From NCBI GenBank assembly GCA_017642935.1, contig JAEPOK010000002.1, forward strand, positions 682,001-746,000: a stretch of 64,000 nucleotides of DNA, given 5' to 3'. The stretch's first letter is position 1, and each line of letters opens with the position of its first letter. The notes beneath the pieces were generated by a model that was not told where the DNA came from, made no database searches, and was given only the letters and a program-made list of their open reading frames with translations. Below are positions 20,048-26,003 of this stretch, one piece after another. Position numbers and translations under genes: made by a program. The stretch comes from Hyphomicrobiales bacterium. Lineage in GTDB: Bacteria > Pseudomonadota > Alphaproteobacteria > Rhizobiales > MH13.

Positions 20048-20776
20048 ATGCAAGTTGATATTATCGATCTGCGCGATTTTTACACCAGCCCACTCGGTCT
20101 GCGCACGCGTGGTTTTTTGCGCGTCGCGCTGCGCCGCCACCTTCCCGACGCCAAGGGGCTGGACGTGGCCGGTATCGGTTTTTCCAATCCCTATCTTGGC
20201 CAGTTTCGCGGCGAGGCCGAACGGTTGATGAGCTTTATGCCGGGCGTTCAGGGCTGTGTGAATTGGCCATCGAGCGGGCCGAATGCTTCGGTCTTGGTTG
20301 ACGAGGATGCACTGCCGCTGGCCAATGCCACGCTTGATCGCGTGTTTCTGATCCATGCGCTGGAGTTCTCGCCCCACCCGCGCCAATTGATGGAAGAAGT
20401 TTGGCGGGTGCTTGCGCCGGGCGGGCGGATGATCGCCGTGGTGCCCAATCGGCGTGGGCTGCTGGCGCGGGTGGATTCTACGCCCTTTGGCCATGGCCGT
20501 CCCTTTTCCAAGGGTCAGATGATCCGATTGTGCCGCGATACGCAGTTTTCGCCGACGGCCTGGTCCGAAGCCCTGCACTTCTTTCCGTTTCAAAACCGAC
20601 TGGCGCTGCGCACGGCAAGCTTCTTTGAACGCATGGGCAAAAGCGTTGTCTCACCGCTGGGCGGGGTCATCATCTTGGAGGCGACCAAGCACATGTTCCG
20701 CGGTTTGCCGGTGACCGAAGGCGCGAAAGTGCGCGCCAAACCTGTGCTCGTACCGGTGGGCGCCGTGCCGAACTGA
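20048..20776 (+). CDS. Class I SAM-dependent methyltransferase
   Basis: The 242-residue product has a class I methyltransferase core: GLDVAGIGFSNPYLGQF corresponds to motif I, LPLANATLDRVFLIHALEF to motifs II-III and LAPGGRMIAVVPNRRG to the post-III region. Target is unknown. Homologues stand divergently beside gloB in Rhizobiales in my recollection. No membrane segment is present. Confidence 0.88.
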   Translation: MQVDIIDLRDFYTSPLGLRTRGFLRVALRRHLPDAKGLDVAGIGFSNPYLGQFRGEAERLMSFMPGVQGCVNWPSSGPNASVLVDEDALPLANATLDRVFLIHALEFSPHPRQLMEEVWRVLAPGGRMIAVVPNRRGLLARVDSTPFGHGRPFSKGQMIRLCRDTQFSPTAWSEALHFFPFQNRLALRTASFFERMGKSVVSPLGGVIILEATKHMFRGLPVTEGAKVRAKPVLVPVGAVPN

Positions 20777-20938
20777 GGCGGTTTGCGCCAATTCGATGGC
20801 ATTTTAAACAACCTCTCAATGGTTCGGCATTGATAGGTCTAAGAAGATGCTTCGTGTTTGATCGTTTTAATCAGTTCGAGATTGAACGAAATTACGATCA
20901 CCCTTCTGTTCCTTTTCTCTTTGTCGGAGGAATGATGT

Positions 20939-21487
20939 ATGAAGGGCATTGTTTTTACTGAATTTCTTGAGATGGTGGATGACAGTTTTGGTTACGAAAC
21001 CACCGAGGCGATCATCAAAAAAGCCGACCTGCCATCCGGCGGCGTTTACACCGGTATCGGGACCTATTCTCATTCGGAGATGATCGCGCTGGTCAAAGGG
21101 CTGAGTGCGGAAACGCACGTCAAAGTCCAAGTGCTGGTCCAGACGTTCGGTGAACATATGCTCGGCCGGTTTGTCGACTTGTTTCCCGACTTCTTTTCAA
21201 CGGTGCCGGATGTTCTCTCGTTCCTGGAGAATGTCGACGGCTACATCCACGGCGAAGTGCGCAAGCTTTATCCCAACGCAACGCTTCCCGAGATCGCGAC
21301 GCGCCGTTTGGACGATGGCCAGTTTGAACTCATCTACAAGTCTCCCCGGCACCTGGGCGACTTCGCCGAAGGGTTGATCGCTGGAGCGATCCGTCATTTC
21401 GGCGAGCCGTTCGCCGTGCAGCGCACCGATCTTCCCAATGAAGGCCAGCGGCAATGCGTGAAGTTCATGCTCGCTCCACGACCCTAG
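20939..21487 (+). CDS. H-NOX heme nitric-oxide/oxygen sensor
   Basis: The 182-residue product is a complete stand-alone H-NOX. MKGIVFTEFLEMVDDSFG is the N-terminal signature. His104 in GYIHGEVRKLYPNA is the proximal heme ligand, and Tyr133-Ser135-Arg137 in IYKSPR form the YxSxR motif that holds the heme propionates. Such cytosolic proteins bind NO at sub-nanomolar levels and signal to partner kinases or cyclic-di-GMP enzymes. CGGAGG precedes the ATG. The next gene overlaps it by 34 bases and encodes a degenerate HD-GYP protein, so a cyclic-di-GMP-type output is likely. Confidence 0.95.
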   Translation: MKGIVFTEFLEMVDDSFGYETTEAIIKKADLPSGGVYTGIGTYSHSEMIALVKGLSAETHVKVQVLVQTFGEHMLGRFVDLFPDFFSTVPDVLSFLENVDGYIHGEVRKLYPNATLPEIATRRLDDGQFELIYKSPRHLGDFAEGLIAGAIRHFGEPFAVQRTDLPNEGQRQCVKFMLAPRP

Positions 21488-22380
21488 AGGCCGAACCGGA
21501 CCCTCGTATCGCCGCGCTGGAACGCCGCGTCGAACGCGAACGGGCCGCGCGCAAGGCTGCCGAGGCGGTGATCGAGGAAAAGAGCCGCGAGCTTTTCGAC
21601 CTTGCCAAGGAACTCGAGCTTCAGCTGTCAGGTAGCGTCAAGGTTCTGGCGGATGTGCTTGCCATGGCGCGGCCGGAGCTCTTTCAGCAGGCCGGCAAAG
21701 TCCAGCGCTGGGCGCGCCGCATTGCGCCGCATCTGGAGATAAAACGCGTTTGGGAGCTTGATCTGGCGGCTATGCTTTATCCGCTTGGTATGCTGTCGCT
21801 GCCGGATAATCTGACCAGCAAGAAGGTTCTCGGCGAGCCGCTGACCCAAGACGAGCATGACATGATCGCCGAAAGCGTTCAGGTCGCGCATGGGCTCATT
21901 AATACTATTCCAAAGATGCAGGCCGTGGCCGAAACGGTGCTCTACTGCAATCGCGGGTTTGATGGCAGCGGCTATCCGCCCGATGGACCCAAGGGCAAGG
22001 ACATCCCCAAAAGCGCCCGTATCCTGAAGGTGCTGATCGATTTGGCTGATGTTGCAACGGGCACGGACAAAAAGCGGGATTTCCAGCCGCTTCTCGACAA
22101 GCGCTATCTGTACGATGTCGACATATTGAAGGTGGCGTACAAGAGCCTCAACATCAGCCCGCAGCAACAGGCGTTTGAAGGCCAGTATATGAGCGTCCAA
22201 CCGGGGCAATTGATCCCTGGCGACATCATTCGCGCCGATATTGTTGATGCCAACAATCAGCTGCTTCTGGCGGCGGGAAGCGTCCTGTCCGACATCACCA
22301 TTCGCAGGCTCTTTGCGCTTTACGCATCACGGCGGATCGATGGCGCGGTCAACATCGCGCGTGTCACGTCTGACAAGTAG
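21454..22380 (+). CDS. Degenerate HD-GYP domain protein, H-NOX partner
   Basis: The 308-residue product has an N-terminal coiled coil (about residues 18-58) and an HD-GYP-like domain. The GYP part is kept (GFDGSGYPPDGPKG, residues 168-181). The metal-binding HD is replaced by YP (109-110) in AAMLYPLGMLSLPD, and the usual HHE before DGSGYP reads CNR (165-167). Phosphodiesterase activity is therefore unlikely; a binding or allosteric role is more plausible, as described for the Shewanella H-NOX effector HnoD. It overlaps the H-NOX gene by 34 bases, so a start a little further in cannot be excluded. Confidence 0.8.
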   Translation: MREVHARSTTLEAEPDPRIAALERRVERERAARKAAEAVIEEKSRELFDLAKELELQLSGSVKVLADVLAMARPELFQQAGKVQRWARRIAPHLEIKRVWELDLAAMLYPLGMLSLPDNLTSKKVLGEPLTQDEHDMIAESVQVAHGLINTIPKMQAVAETVLYCNRGFDGSGYPPDGPKGKDIPKSARILKVLIDLADVATGTDKKRDFQPLLDKRYLYDVDILKVAYKSLNISPQQQAFEGQYMSVQPGQLIPGDIIRADIVDANNQLLLAAGSVLSDITIRRLFALYASRRIDGAVNIARVTSDK

Positions 22381-22454
22381 AGCGCTTTGCTGGTTGCCGG
22401 TGTGATGCGACCGGCGCGCTGATCCTGGAAGAATTTGGAGGAACATCCTTACCC

Positions 22455-22546
22455 AGTCGGCAAGAATTGTCGTTTGGGTTATTTGCTGGTGCGGCTACTA
22501 TCAATTCTGACCCAAGAAGTCGTAAAGTAAATTCATTCTGCCGACT
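22455..22546. promoter_or_regulatory. Separated imperfect inverted repeat before the LuxR-type genes
   Basis: AGTCGGCAAGAAT (22455-22467) and ATTCTGCCGACT (22535-22546) are inverted copies differing by one extra A. They bracket most of the region between the HD-GYP gene and the first LuxR-type gene. Spacing would suit DNA looping or two half-operators. The binding factor is unknown. Confidence 0.4.
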
Positions 22547-22573
22547 AGTTTGTTGTCGTCGGGGAGTGAATGT

Positions 22574-22825
22574 GTGTCCGATGAATCCCGCCCAAGACTG
22601 ACGCTACGTGAGCGTGAAATCATGGCGCTCATCGCGACCGGTTTGAACAGCCGCGCCATCGCGCGCCATCTGGGCATTGCCTATTTCACGGTGCGCAAAC
22701 ACCGCTCGAACATCTTGCCCAAGCTTGATCTGCACGATGCGGCAGAGCTGCAGGCCTTTGCGGCGCGGCATTTTCTAGAAGACGCGCCATCCGTCCCAAA
22801 GTCGGCGTTGCTTTGGGTGGTTTGA
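22574..22825 (+). CDS. Mini LuxR-type HTH regulator 1
   Basis: The product is 83 residues from a GTG at 22574 with GGGGAG about eight bases upstream. It is almost only a LuxR/FixJ-type helix-turn-helix: LTLREREIMALIATGLNSRAIA, then HLGIAYFTVRKHRSNILPKL. There is no receiver or ligand domain. A Pro/Ser-rich tail follows. Its end overlaps the next LuxR-type frame by 13 bases in another frame, so coupled translation or a past frameshift in a two-HTH protein are both possible. Confidence 0.75.
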   Translation: MSDESRPRLTLREREIMALIATGLNSRAIARHLGIAYFTVRKHRSNILPKLDLHDAAELQAFAARHFLEDAPSVPKSALLWVV

Positions 22826-23034
22826 CCGACCGGCAGCACGTGATCGCTCGGCTGGTCGCGCAGGGCAAGACCTCCAAACATATCGCCCGTGACCTTGGGA
22901 TCAGTCCGCTGACGGTGCGGACGCATCGGCGCAACCTGTTCAAGGTGCTTGGCGTCCATTCGGTGGCTGAGTTGGTTCAGGTGGTGGAGAGCATTGAGCG
23001 CCAGCGGCCACGGCCCGATACCCTAACCGAGTAA
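22813..23034 (+). CDS. Mini LuxR-type HTH regulator 2
   Basis: The 73-residue product is again just a LuxR-type HTH: LTDRQHVIARLVAQGKTSKHIA followed by RDLGISPLTVRTHRRNLFKVLGV. The first usable start is the TTG at 22813 (or TTG at 22822) inside the end of regulator 1, in the +2 frame relative to it. It ends 72 bases before a gene with a very strong ribosome site. The two HTH units are clearly related but not close copies. Confidence 0.7.
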   Translation: MGGLTDRQHVIARLVAQGKTSKHIARDLGISPLTVRTHRRNLFKVLGVHSVAELVQVVESIERQRPRPDTLTE

Positions 23035-23106
23035 TATCGGCAAAGGTTACACTAATACATCCTTAGGTTGTGATTGTCTTATCACACAAACCATAGGAGG
23101 CCGATC

Positions 23107-24099
23107 ATGGCTAGCGAACAAATCATCGTCTACATCGACACCAATCAGTTGGCTGCGCAGAAAGCCAACAATTACAGCTTGTATTTGGCCAAGAAGGTCA
23201 ACGGCAACTACACCGTTGTCTGGCAGTCCAAAGGACCGCTGGCGACGGTCACCAACCCTGCTGTCTACGAGTACAAGAACACCTTCAACATCACCATTCC
23301 CTCCTATCAGGTGAACTACGGCACGGTGACCGACCAGCAGGGCGCCATCTCGTTTTCCGCCGGCGGCAAGGCGGTCAACATTGACGAGGGGCAGACTGTG
23401 GAACTGAACAGTCAGGGCATTTTTGCCTCGCCGACCAACACCGGCACGACCGGTGTGATCACCATCAACAACCAGTTGCAGGGTAACCCCAACGCGATCC
23501 TCAACGACAATGAAGGCAACACGATTTACGTCAATGATTACAGTGGGATGGATGTTGGCCAATCCACGTTGACGCCAATCGACGAGTATCAGATCTGGTT
23601 TGACTCCTATCAGAATACCGGCACGATCATTGCCCACAATGTCTCCAATGCTGGGACTGTCACCTTCTCCGGCGGCGTTGCCAGCCAGACCATCAGCTAC
23701 ACCAGCGAAGGCCAATGGGTGGCCGGCGATCTGCCCAGCAGTTCTGATGTCGACCTTTCGGCAGTGGGGGCGGCGACGAACACACTTGCTGTGCAAGTTG
23801 TGGCGTTGTTCAGCAAAGCGCTGACCGCCGGCGCGGTGACGTTCCTGCTCAGCAAGTTGATCGATAAGTTCGCCGACAATCTGCGGCCGACCACCATCAC
23901 CGCAGGGGCTGGCAATGCGACGCTTAAGTTCGAGTTTGCGAACGGGCCGGACGGTGATGCGCAGGTTACGTCGATGGACTCGTACGAAGACGCGGTCAAC
24001 GATGCACTCAAAGCGCTCCGCAATGAGAAAAACTCACCCATCGCCAACGAAAAGTGGGGGATCAGCGAGCCGGACGTCGCCGTGTTTTACGGCAACTGA
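23107..24099 (+). CDS. Uncharacterised beta-rich protein with a perfect ribosome site
   Basis: I do not recognise this 330-residue protein. AGGAGG precedes the ATG by six bases and codon choice is strongly biased (mostly AAC, AAG, ACC, ATC), so it is probably abundant. There is no signal peptide. Residues 1-215 are rich in Asn, Thr, Gly, Tyr and Val and probably beta-sheet. Residues 219-254 are long and hydrophobic (AVQVVALFSKALTAGAVTFL), like a membrane-active hairpin. A polar, partly helical tail follows. A surface, inclusion or membrane-active role is possible, but none is shown. The LuxR-type genes upstream may control it. Confidence 0.75.
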   Translation: MASEQIIVYIDTNQLAAQKANNYSLYLAKKVNGNYTVVWQSKGPLATVTNPAVYEYKNTFNITIPSYQVNYGTVTDQQGAISFSAGGKAVNIDEGQTVELNSQGIFASPTNTGTTGVITINNQLQGNPNAILNDNEGNTIYVNDYSGMDVGQSTLTPIDEYQIWFDSYQNTGTIIAHNVSNAGTVTFSGGVASQTISYTSEGQWVAGDLPSSSDVDLSAVGAATNTLAVQVVALFSKALTAGAVTFLLSKLIDKFADNLRPTTITAGAGNATLKFEFANGPDGDAQVTSMDSYEDAVNDALKALRNEKNSPIANEKWGISEPDVAVFYGN

Positions 24100-24123
24100 T
24101 GTGATGCCTCAGGCATGAGAACG

Positions 24124-24171
24124 CCGCCCTGTGTTTTAGCCAATGATTGGCTGAAGCCTGGGGCGGTTTTT
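24124..24171 (+). terminator. Terminator after the uncharacterised protein gene
   Basis: CCGCCC (24124-24129) pairs with GGGCGG (24161-24166), followed by TTTTT. A second hairpin AGCCAA-TGA-TTGGCT (24138-24152) is nested in the loop. It starts 25 bases after the stop codon. The following 220 bases up to 24389 show no further gene. Confidence 0.75.
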
Positions 24172-24389
24172 CGATGGATCGAAGTGTGGTGCTGCGGTTT
24201 GAAGACATCAATAGCGGTTCGGAGCGCTAGTTCGACTTTCAAAACGTGCACGGCCAATAACCAGTCGGAGCGCCGGGTGGACCTTTCCAGTTGTCACGGA
24301 CACATGCTGGAAGAGCTTATGTGAACTATTTGGTATCGCCGACCAGCAATGCGAGCTAGCTTACCGCTAGGGCAACCAGGGGTAATGAC

Positions 24390-24968
24390 ATGCTAGAAGC
24401 AGGCGCAAAGGTGACCAATCAGCGGTCTGGAACACAGTTCGAACTACTTCAGATCGACCCTGCTGGTTTCGTCATGCGGTACACCATGAACGATAAAACG
24501 CTGGTTCCAGATTTTGCCGAGCACTTTCATGTTGGCTGGCATGAGGACTTCAAAGTGCTTTCCGGTGAAGGCACTTATGTTTTGGGTGGAGAAGAGGGCC
24601 GCGTTAAAGCCGGTGAGACTGTCTCAATGCCGGAGCAGGTGAAACACATTCACCCGATGAACGCGCTTGCTGAACCGATGATTATGGAGCAGCACACCAA
24701 GGTTACCGGTCATGGCCCCAATGCGGTTCAAGATACGCTTGGATTCCTGTTCACGATGTTTGAGTGGGAAGCTGAGGGCAAGATTGCGCTTGATAGGCTG
24801 GGGCTGCCAAAAAACCCAATGAAGTTCGCCGCAGCTGGGCGCATCTTGGGCAACGCGGGCAGCTATGACGCGCGGCTTCCCAAGGGCGCAGCAGATTTCG
24901 CTGGCGCTACGTTTGGACGGCTGGCTGAAATGATGGGGATCTCTGTCATTGACCCAAAGTGGCGTTGA
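24390..24968 (+). CDS. Cupin-domain protein
   Basis: The 192-residue product has a cupin core: HFHVGWHEDFKVLSGEGTYVLG gives motif 1 with its histidines and glutamate region, and VSMPEQVKHIHPMNA gives motif 2. A C-terminal helical region follows (LGFLFTMFEWEAEGK to the end). Cupins bind a metal and act as enzymes or ligand sensors; this one cannot be placed further. It stands alone, convergent with the downstream DMT transporter gene. Confidence 0.8.
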   Translation: MLEAGAKVTNQRSGTQFELLQIDPAGFVMRYTMNDKTLVPDFAEHFHVGWHEDFKVLSGEGTYVLGGEEGRVKAGETVSMPEQVKHIHPMNALAEPMIMEQHTKVTGHGPNAVQDTLGFLFTMFEWEAEGKIALDRLGLPKNPMKFAAAGRILGNAGSYDARLPKGAADFAGATFGRLAEMMGISVIDPKWR

Positions 24969-25058
24969 AGCGATTCATGCTGGCGTGACCTAGAGCTACG
25001 CTTTTCGAGTGGTTTCAACGAGAGCTTTTCCGCTAAGCCATTACCCCCAATGCACCCG

Positions 25059-26003
25059 CTAAATGCTCTTCACCACGCGTAGTTTCCGTTCACGATAGAG
25101 CGTGAAGAGGCCGGCGCCGATGACCAGTGTCGCGCCGAGGATCATCCAGATGTCGGGTACTTCGCCAAAGAAGACATAAGCCAGGATCAGCGCCGCCACC
25201 AAACGCGTGTAGCGATAGGGCGCGACGACGGACAGTTCGCCCATGCGGGTCGAAAGCGTGATGGCGTAATAGGCTGCCATGCCGAAAAACCCACCGCCGA
25301 TGATGTAGGCCCAAGCGGCAGGCGCGATCTGCGTGAACAGCGGCTCGCCCTCCATGATTGCGTGCATGGCAAGTCCGGTGGGGATCAGCAGCGCGGCCAC
25401 CATGGTGACAATCGAGAAGGTGGAAAAGCGCGCCTGCATCCGTCGGGCGGCCAGATCACGGATCGCAAGGCCAGCCACGGCGAGCAGCGCCCAGATCGTG
25501 TTGATATCATAGCCGGCGGTGCCCGGGCGGATGATGATCATGACGCCGGCAAAGCCAACCAGAATCGCGCTCCAGCGCCGCCAACCGACCGCCTCGCCCA
25601 GCACCAAAGCCGCGCCCAGCGTGACCACCAATGGCAGCACCTGCAGGATCGCCGCCACATTGGAGAGCGGCATCAGGGTGAGCGCCGTCACGATGGCGCC
25701 GGCTGCCAGCAAGTCGCCAAAGGTGCGCCAGACGATGGCTTTGTCGCCTGCCATGCCGCGCAGGAGCGTTGGTGTCATGCGGTTGCCTTCGCGCCACATC
25801 AGCGCGCCATAGACGAGGACGCCAAGCACGCCCTTGATGATCAAGATTTCGCCTGGCGAGGCAGAGCTTGCGCCTAGATTTCCGGCTGCTTTGATGGCCG
25901 CGTCGTCAAAGGCGAACAAAACCATGGAGAACGCCATCAAGATGATGGCTTTGATGTTGTCGCCGGATTGATCGGGTTGGGTCGGATTGGGGGTGTTGGT
26001 CAC
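25059..26003 (-). CDS. EamA-family (DMT) transporter
   Basis: The product is 314 residues from a GTG at 26003. It has ten predicted helices in two EamA halves; LPLVVTLGAALVLGEAVGWRRW and PYRYTRLVAALILAYVFFGEV are typical EamA end-of-half motifs. The GTG lies two bases after the metW stop with GAGG just before it, so translation is probably coupled to metW. The longer frame to 26075 would overlap metW. The substrate is unknown. Confidence 0.88.
   Translation of the reverse strand: MTNTPNPTQPDQSGDNIKAIILMAFSMVLFAFDDAAIKAAGNLGASSASPGEILIIKGVLGVLVYGALMWREGNRMTPTLLRGMAGDKAIVWRTFGDLLAAGAIVTALTLMPLSNVAAILQVLPLVVTLGAALVLGEAVGWRRWSAILVGFAGVMIIIRPGTAGYDINTIWALLAVAGLAIRDLAARRMQARFSTFSIVTMVAALLIPTGLAMHAIMEGEPLFTQIAPAAWAYIIGGGFFGMAAYYAITLSTRMGELSVVAPYRYTRLVAALILAYVFFGEVPDIWMILGATLVIGAGLFTLYRERKLRVVKSI

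What the first reader, a model, noticed from the sequence alone, without database searches (positions are those of the whole stretch)
23107..24099. Unknown, probably abundant protein with beta-rich N-terminus and long hydrophobic segment
A perfect AGGAGG, biased codons and a strong terminator mark a highly expressed gene, yet I recognise no family. A beta-rich 215-residue region followed by a 36-residue hydrophobic stretch without a signal peptide is reminiscent of membrane-active or self-assembling proteins. Its location downstream of sensory and LuxR-type genes suggests conditional production.
Basis: partly seen in the sequence, partly recalled or inferred. Interest (0 to 1): 0.6.

Follow-up and report, generated by a model that had tools for sequence, protein, structure and literature searches.

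The report
Regulated signal-less protein of undescribed family
The gene makes a real, conserved protein belonging to a scattered bacterial protein family that none of the libraries searched here describes, it sits directly behind two small switch genes and was gained by this lineage as part of a small inserted block, and what it does is still unknown.

Summary
The ORF at 23107-24099 is a real gene with the AGGAGG and terminator as described. The 'biased codons' claim fails: its CAI of 0.647 ranks 21st of 60 window genes. No Pfam, NCBIfam, PHROG, PADLOC or PDB sequence match was found.

It is not an orphan. A full-length ortholog (51% identity over 327 aa, hydrophobic C-terminus included) lies in a Reyranella MAG, behind the same two overlapping GerE/LuxR-type HTH ORFs and before a hairpin terminator. 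Its first ~205 residues belong to a scattered bacterial domain family (Aminobacter, Sphingomonas, Rhizobium, Skermanella, Vibrio, Alicyclobacillus). A profile built only from distant subfamilies finds the window protein at E 2e-13, against 150 for the next window ORF. Members lack signal peptides, often occur as tandem pairs, and several follow an AraC- or LuxR-type regulator gene. The locus lies in a ~4.3-kb block missing from three congeners.

Most likely it is a conditionally made cytoplasmic beta-protein that works like AidA/PixA inclusion proteins, with an added C-terminal module. Membership of PixA was tested and not met. Membrane insertion by the C-terminus is the main rival. Both AlphaFold models failed (pLDDT 41), so the fold is inferred, not shown.

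The parts
23107..24099 (+). The gene: 330-aa protein, core beta-domain plus C-terminal module
   Evidence: ORF and translation; full-length ortholog 51% identical
23107..23721 (+). Core domain, residues 1-205, member of the undescribed family
   Evidence: 60.8% identical to the Reyranella ortholog in this part; profile from other subfamilies hits at 2.2e-13 to 2.5e-17
23722..24096 (+). C-terminal module, residues 206-330, found only in the window and Reyranella proteins
   Evidence: 37.3% identical to the ortholog; no other database match
23749..23862 (+). Hydrophobic to amphipathic segment, residues 215-252
   Evidence: Best 19-residue hydropathy 1.75 (window) and 1.62 (Reyranella)
23095..23100 (+). 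Shine-Dalgarno AGGAGG
   Evidence: Sequence
23066..23092 (+). Imperfect inverted repeat in the 72-bp gap before the gene; candidate operator or 5' UTR hairpin
   Evidence: Fold of 23035-23110, z -2.85; function not tested
24117..24172 (+). Intrinsic terminator
   Evidence: Hairpin -39.7 kcal/mol, z -5.87, followed by TTTTT
22550..22825 (+). First GerE/LuxR-type HTH ORF (91 aa, no sensor domain found)
   Evidence: Pfam GerE 2.5e-14; 44% identical to the first ORF of the Reyranella locus
22822..23034 (+). Second GerE/LuxR-type HTH ORF (70 aa), start codon overlapping the previous stop (TTGA)
   Evidence: Pfam GerE 4.8e-16; 53% identical to the second ORF of the Reyranella locus, with the same overlap there (CTGA)
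20779..25080 (.). Block of about 4.3 kb absent from three same-genus genomes, in which the flanking methyltransferase and EamA genes are adjacent
24390..24968 (+). Cupin-domain gene inside the same block, link to the module unknown
   Evidence: Pfam Cupin_2 3.1e-7
20939..22380 (+). H-NOX and HD-domain genes inside the same block; a separate locus in congener G002, not part of the conserved module

Best explanation
A horizontally moving, regulator-plus-effector cassette. Two single-domain GerE/LuxR-type HTH proteins, made from overlapping ORFs, switch on (or off) the gene behind them. The product stays in the cytoplasm (no signal peptide) as a soluble acidic beta-sandwich-like protein that probably oligomerises and is released or acts in dealings with other organisms, in the way AidA/PixA inclusion proteins are thought to. 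In this lineage a C-terminal module with a hydrophobic helix has been added, which could anchor it to membranes or to its partner. Shown: gene reality, family, architecture, absence of signal peptide, conserved regulator pair, block absent from congeners. Inferred: regulation by the neighbours, fold, oligomerisation, and role.
For: Conserved module LuxR-LuxR-gene-terminator in the window and in Reyranella. Other family members sit behind AraC-type genes in Aminobacter, Sphingomonas L030 and R. etli. Tandem pairs in six lineages: G100, G459, G483, G570, the f28 family and Skermanella. PixA genes show the same tandem, signal-less layout, and AidA/PixA genes are controlled by adjacent LuxR-type regulators in Ralstonia and Photorhabdus (PMC10143992) and by CepR in Burkholderia (PMC9060813). 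Patchy distribution (4 of 299 genomes in the phylum sample), plasmid carriage, and absence from congeners.
Against: No detectable homology to PixA: hhalign probability 0.4% with shallow profiles. No reliable structure. No expression data; codon usage does not indicate abundance. Some loci have no obvious regulator next door (G100 and f28; Vibrio). Only one full-length ortholog was found, in a MAG. The AidA/PixA mechanism is itself poorly understood.
Confidence: 0.35

Rival explanations
1. A membrane-active protein: the core domain binds a surface (lipid or glycan) and the C-terminal hydrophobic helix inserts into a target membrane, permeabilising competitor or predator cells after release by lysis.
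For: Hydrophobic and amphipathic segment conserved in both full-length orthologs despite only 37% identity in that region; no signal peptide; mobile, regulator-linked gene.
Against: The segment is only moderately hydrophobic (1.75, with a lysine inside); family members without it exist in most lineages; no recognisable secretion genes next to it; no match to any pore-former family in Pfam.
Confidence: 0.2
2. A lectin-like or other ligand-binding protein made in the cytoplasm and used for attachment or defence on lysis, with no membrane insertion.
For: Signal-less beta-proteins in tandem copies with variable fused modules resemble bacterial and fungal cytoplasmic lectins (own knowledge, not tested).
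Against: No lectin family match; binding residues cannot be named; the only invariant residue in the 17-member alignment is one Trp.
Confidence: 0.15
3. An intracellular protein that acts on the host's own regulation, for example an acidic DNA-mimic such as proposed for Bnr1.
For: Net charge -16; several relatives are acidic; Bnr1 of the PixA family is proposed to be a DNA mimic (PMC9060813).
Against: Charge is not conserved in the family (+8 to -19); the ortholog is -8.
Confidence: 0.07
4. A storage or structural inclusion protein with no partner organism.
For: Strong ribosome-binding site and terminator; signal-less protein.
Against: Codon usage is average; no proteomic data.
Confidence: 0.13

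Closest known systems
AidA/PixA inclusion body proteins (Pfam PF12306; Xenorhabdus PixA, Burkholderia AidA and Bnr1, Ralstonia AidA1/AidA2)
   Same: Small signal-less beta-proteins, often tandem pairs, on plasmids or patchy, next to LuxR-type regulators
   Different: No sequence or profile similarity detected; core is about 205-230 aa against 167-193 aa for the PixA proteins read here; extra modules fused at either end
Uncharacterised protein WP_157097251.1 of Aminobacter plasmids
   Same: Same core domain, 29-36% identical; regulator gene directly upstream
   Different: Has a 100-aa N-terminal module instead of the C-terminal hydrophobic one; regulator is AraC type, not LuxR type
Reyranella MAG protein L033:5995-6978 (unannotated)
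   Same: Full-length ortholog, same two upstream LuxR-type ORFs and a downstream hairpin
   Different: Different gene further upstream; C-terminal half diverged to 37%
GerE/LuxR-type HTH-only regulators (Pfam PF00196)
   Same: Both small ORFs score well above the GerE cut-off
   Different: Two overlapping single-domain ORFs; no autoinducer or receiver domain found

Membership tests
AidA/PixA (PF12306) | Sequence match to the PixA profile | tested here: not met
   No PixA match for the protein, 16 relatives or the family consensus, at E up to 1-10
AidA/PixA (PF12306) | Profile-profile similarity to PixA proteins | tested here: not met
   hhalign probability 0.4%, 17 columns aligned, against 9 PixA sequences; shallow profiles, so remote kinship is not excluded
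AidA/PixA (PF12306) | Jelly-roll dimer as in PDB 4lzk | not testable with these tools
   Models of the window protein have pLDDT 41; structure search not run because it would be meaningless
AidA/PixA (PF12306) | Signal-less protein in tandem pairs, adjacent LuxR-type control | tested here: inconclusive
   No signal peptide and conserved LuxR-type neighbours here; a single copy in this genome, pairs in relatives
Undescribed core-domain family (this report) | Significant profile match with relatives left out | tested here: met
   E 2.2e-13 with Reyranella, Aminobacter and Sphingomonas left out; next window ORF E 150 (Z 1e5)
Undescribed core-domain family (this report) | Core starts a few residues after the initiator Met with no leader; conserved Trp near residue 39 | tested here: met
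   Alignment A6, N-terminal hydropathy
Pore-forming or cytolytic protein families | Match to a Pfam pore-former family | tested here: not met
GerE/LuxR-type regulators (for 22550-23034) | GerE HTH domain above cut-off | tested here: met
   53.1 and 58.6 bits against a cut-off of 23.5

The most novel reading that the evidence does not exclude
A widespread, uncatalogued family of signal-less beta-domain effectors, typically with a regulator gene of their own, in which a core domain is fused to interchangeable modules; the window type carries a membrane-inserting C-terminus and is deployed against other organisms.
Probability: 0.15. Interest if true: 0.72.

Novelty: new variant of a known kind. 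Interest (0 to 1): 0.45.

Why it matters
It turns an apparent single-genome orphan into a family seen in at least two phyla, with a testable regulatory unit. If it works like AidA/PixA, it would add a second group, not recognisably related in sequence, to a poorly understood class of regulator-controlled inclusion proteins, and the conserved two-regulator unit gives an easy handle on when such proteins are made.

Tried and rejected
Codon bias as a sign of abundance: rejected. Link to NO sensing: H-NOX and HD genes are not part of the conserved module. Phage origin: no match in phage records or viral contigs with the protein or with alignments of several subfamilies. Anti-phage defence: no PADLOC match. 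PixA membership; the first PixA genome search rang nowhere and so showed nothing. Collagen_bind, SpoVS and Ribosomal_S8e hits: below cut-off and judged to be chance. Class-wide single-sequence hits L003 and L004, and at least one weak hit that was opened (L009, flagellar basal-body rod genes by eye), are chance. AlphaFold alone and with 8 sequences: pLDDT 40.8 both times, so no fold search was run. C-terminal module alone: no relatives beyond Reyranella in plasmids or Pfam. Early leave-out tests printed nothing because of a file-reading error and were redone. Paper searches for the family by description found nothing.

Full report
The observation. The ORF at 23107-24099 on the + strand encodes 330 residues. 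A perfect AGGAGG stands six bases before the ATG, and a long GC-rich hairpin with a T-run follows the stop. These parts of the finding are correct. The codon claim is not: measured against this genome's own ribosomal and elongation-factor genes (located, fetched), the gene has a CAI of 0.647 and ranks 21st of 60 window genes, close to the window mean. Its GC content (56%) is a little below that of the window (60%).

No library match. Pfam, NCBIfam, PHROGs, PADLOC and PDB sequence searches give nothing above chance for the protein, for the 16 relatives aligned with it, or for the family consensus where that was tried. A one-sequence search of 61 related genomes finds only the gene itself.

A family nonetheless. 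A translated search of plasmids found Aminobacter proteins with 29% identity over residues 3-176. With an alignment of the two, a genome scan found Sphingomonas relatives and a Reyranella MAG protein that matches from end to end: 51% identity overall, 61% in the first 205 residues and 37% in the rest, with third codon positions more diverged than first and second (0.50 against 0.34). Further searches added relatives in other classes and in Rhizobium, Skermanella, Vibrio and a truncated Alicyclobacillus copy next to a TnpB gene. A profile built only from members outside the Reyranella, Aminobacter and Sphingomonas groups finds the window protein at E 2.2e-13, while the next best of the window's ORFs has E 150. 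The kinship is therefore real. In the phylum-wide sample 4 of 299 genomes, the window's own included, carry a member.

Architecture. The core is about 205-230 residues, in most members starts within a few residues of the initiator methionine, and no signal-peptide-like N-terminus was seen in any of the members examined. It occurs alone, often as tandem pairs, sometimes with a small 98-100-residue protein gene in front (G459 and G483). It also occurs with a 100-residue N-terminal module (Aminobacter, Sphingomonas), with a roughly 99-residue N-terminal module in R. etli, and, only in the window and Reyranella proteins, with a 125-residue C-terminal module that begins with the hydrophobic segment. 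That segment is moderate (best 19-mer 1.75) and ends in an amphipathic stretch.

Neighbours. Two small ORFs, 22550-22825 and 22822-23034, directly precede the gene. Each is little more than a GerE/LuxR HTH domain. In Reyranella the same two ORFs precede the ortholog, 44% and 53% identical position by position, and in both genomes the second overlaps the stop of the first (TTGA here, CTGA there). A hairpin followed by a T-run follows the ortholog too (z only -2.2). Relatives in Aminobacter, Sphingomonas L030 and R. etli sit behind AraC-type genes (the HTH of Sphingomonas L030 was read by eye). A regulator next door is thus a repeated feature, though not universal. The H-NOX and HD genes further upstream are not part of the unit.

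Mobility. In three same-genus genomes the gene before position 20776 and the gene after 25059 are neighbours with about 20 to 55 bp between the aligned parts. The window carries about 4.3 kb there: H-NOX, HD, the two HTH ORFs, this gene and a cupin gene. In congener G002 the H-NOX/HD pair is found on another contig. The simplest reading is that this genome gained the block. No insertion sequence was seen in it, and the repeats listed are weak.

Mechanism. The layout of signal-less beta-rich proteins, often paired and next to a LuxR-type regulator, matches what is reported for AidA/PixA inclusion proteins (PMC9060813; PMC10143992), and PixA loci fetched here show the same tandem pairs. Sequence and profile tests do not make it a PixA protein. 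I therefore propose that it works like them (confidence 0.35), with the C-terminal module as an added anchor, and keep membrane permeabilisation (0.20) as the main rival. The fold is not shown: both AlphaFold runs gave pLDDT 41.

Verdict. A real, undescribed family with a conserved regulatory unit; function unproven; interesting but not extraordinary. 'Undescribed' means absent from the libraries and open-access papers searched here.

Noticed in passing
window 20779-25080: A 4.3-kb block absent from three same-genus genomes; the H-NOX/HD pair inside it lies elsewhere in congener G002, so the block may be composite.
   Followed up: partly
L047:7158-7460 and L048:8675-8971: A small, 98-100-residue protein precedes the tandem core-domain genes in two genomes (G483, G459); the two copies resemble each other and the G459 copy has no Pfam match.
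   Followed up: partly
L055:4992-5700: Alicyclobacillus plasmid copy of the core domain is truncated and followed by an IS200/IS605 TnpB gene.
   Followed up: no
L052: Skermanella tandem pair lies among NRPS, phosphopantetheinyl transferase and peptidase-containing ABC exporter genes.
   Followed up: no
window 23066-23092: Imperfect inverted repeat between the second HTH ORF and the gene, possibly an operator.
   Followed up: no
window 24390-24968: Cupin-domain gene in the inserted block, downstream of the terminator.
   Followed up: no
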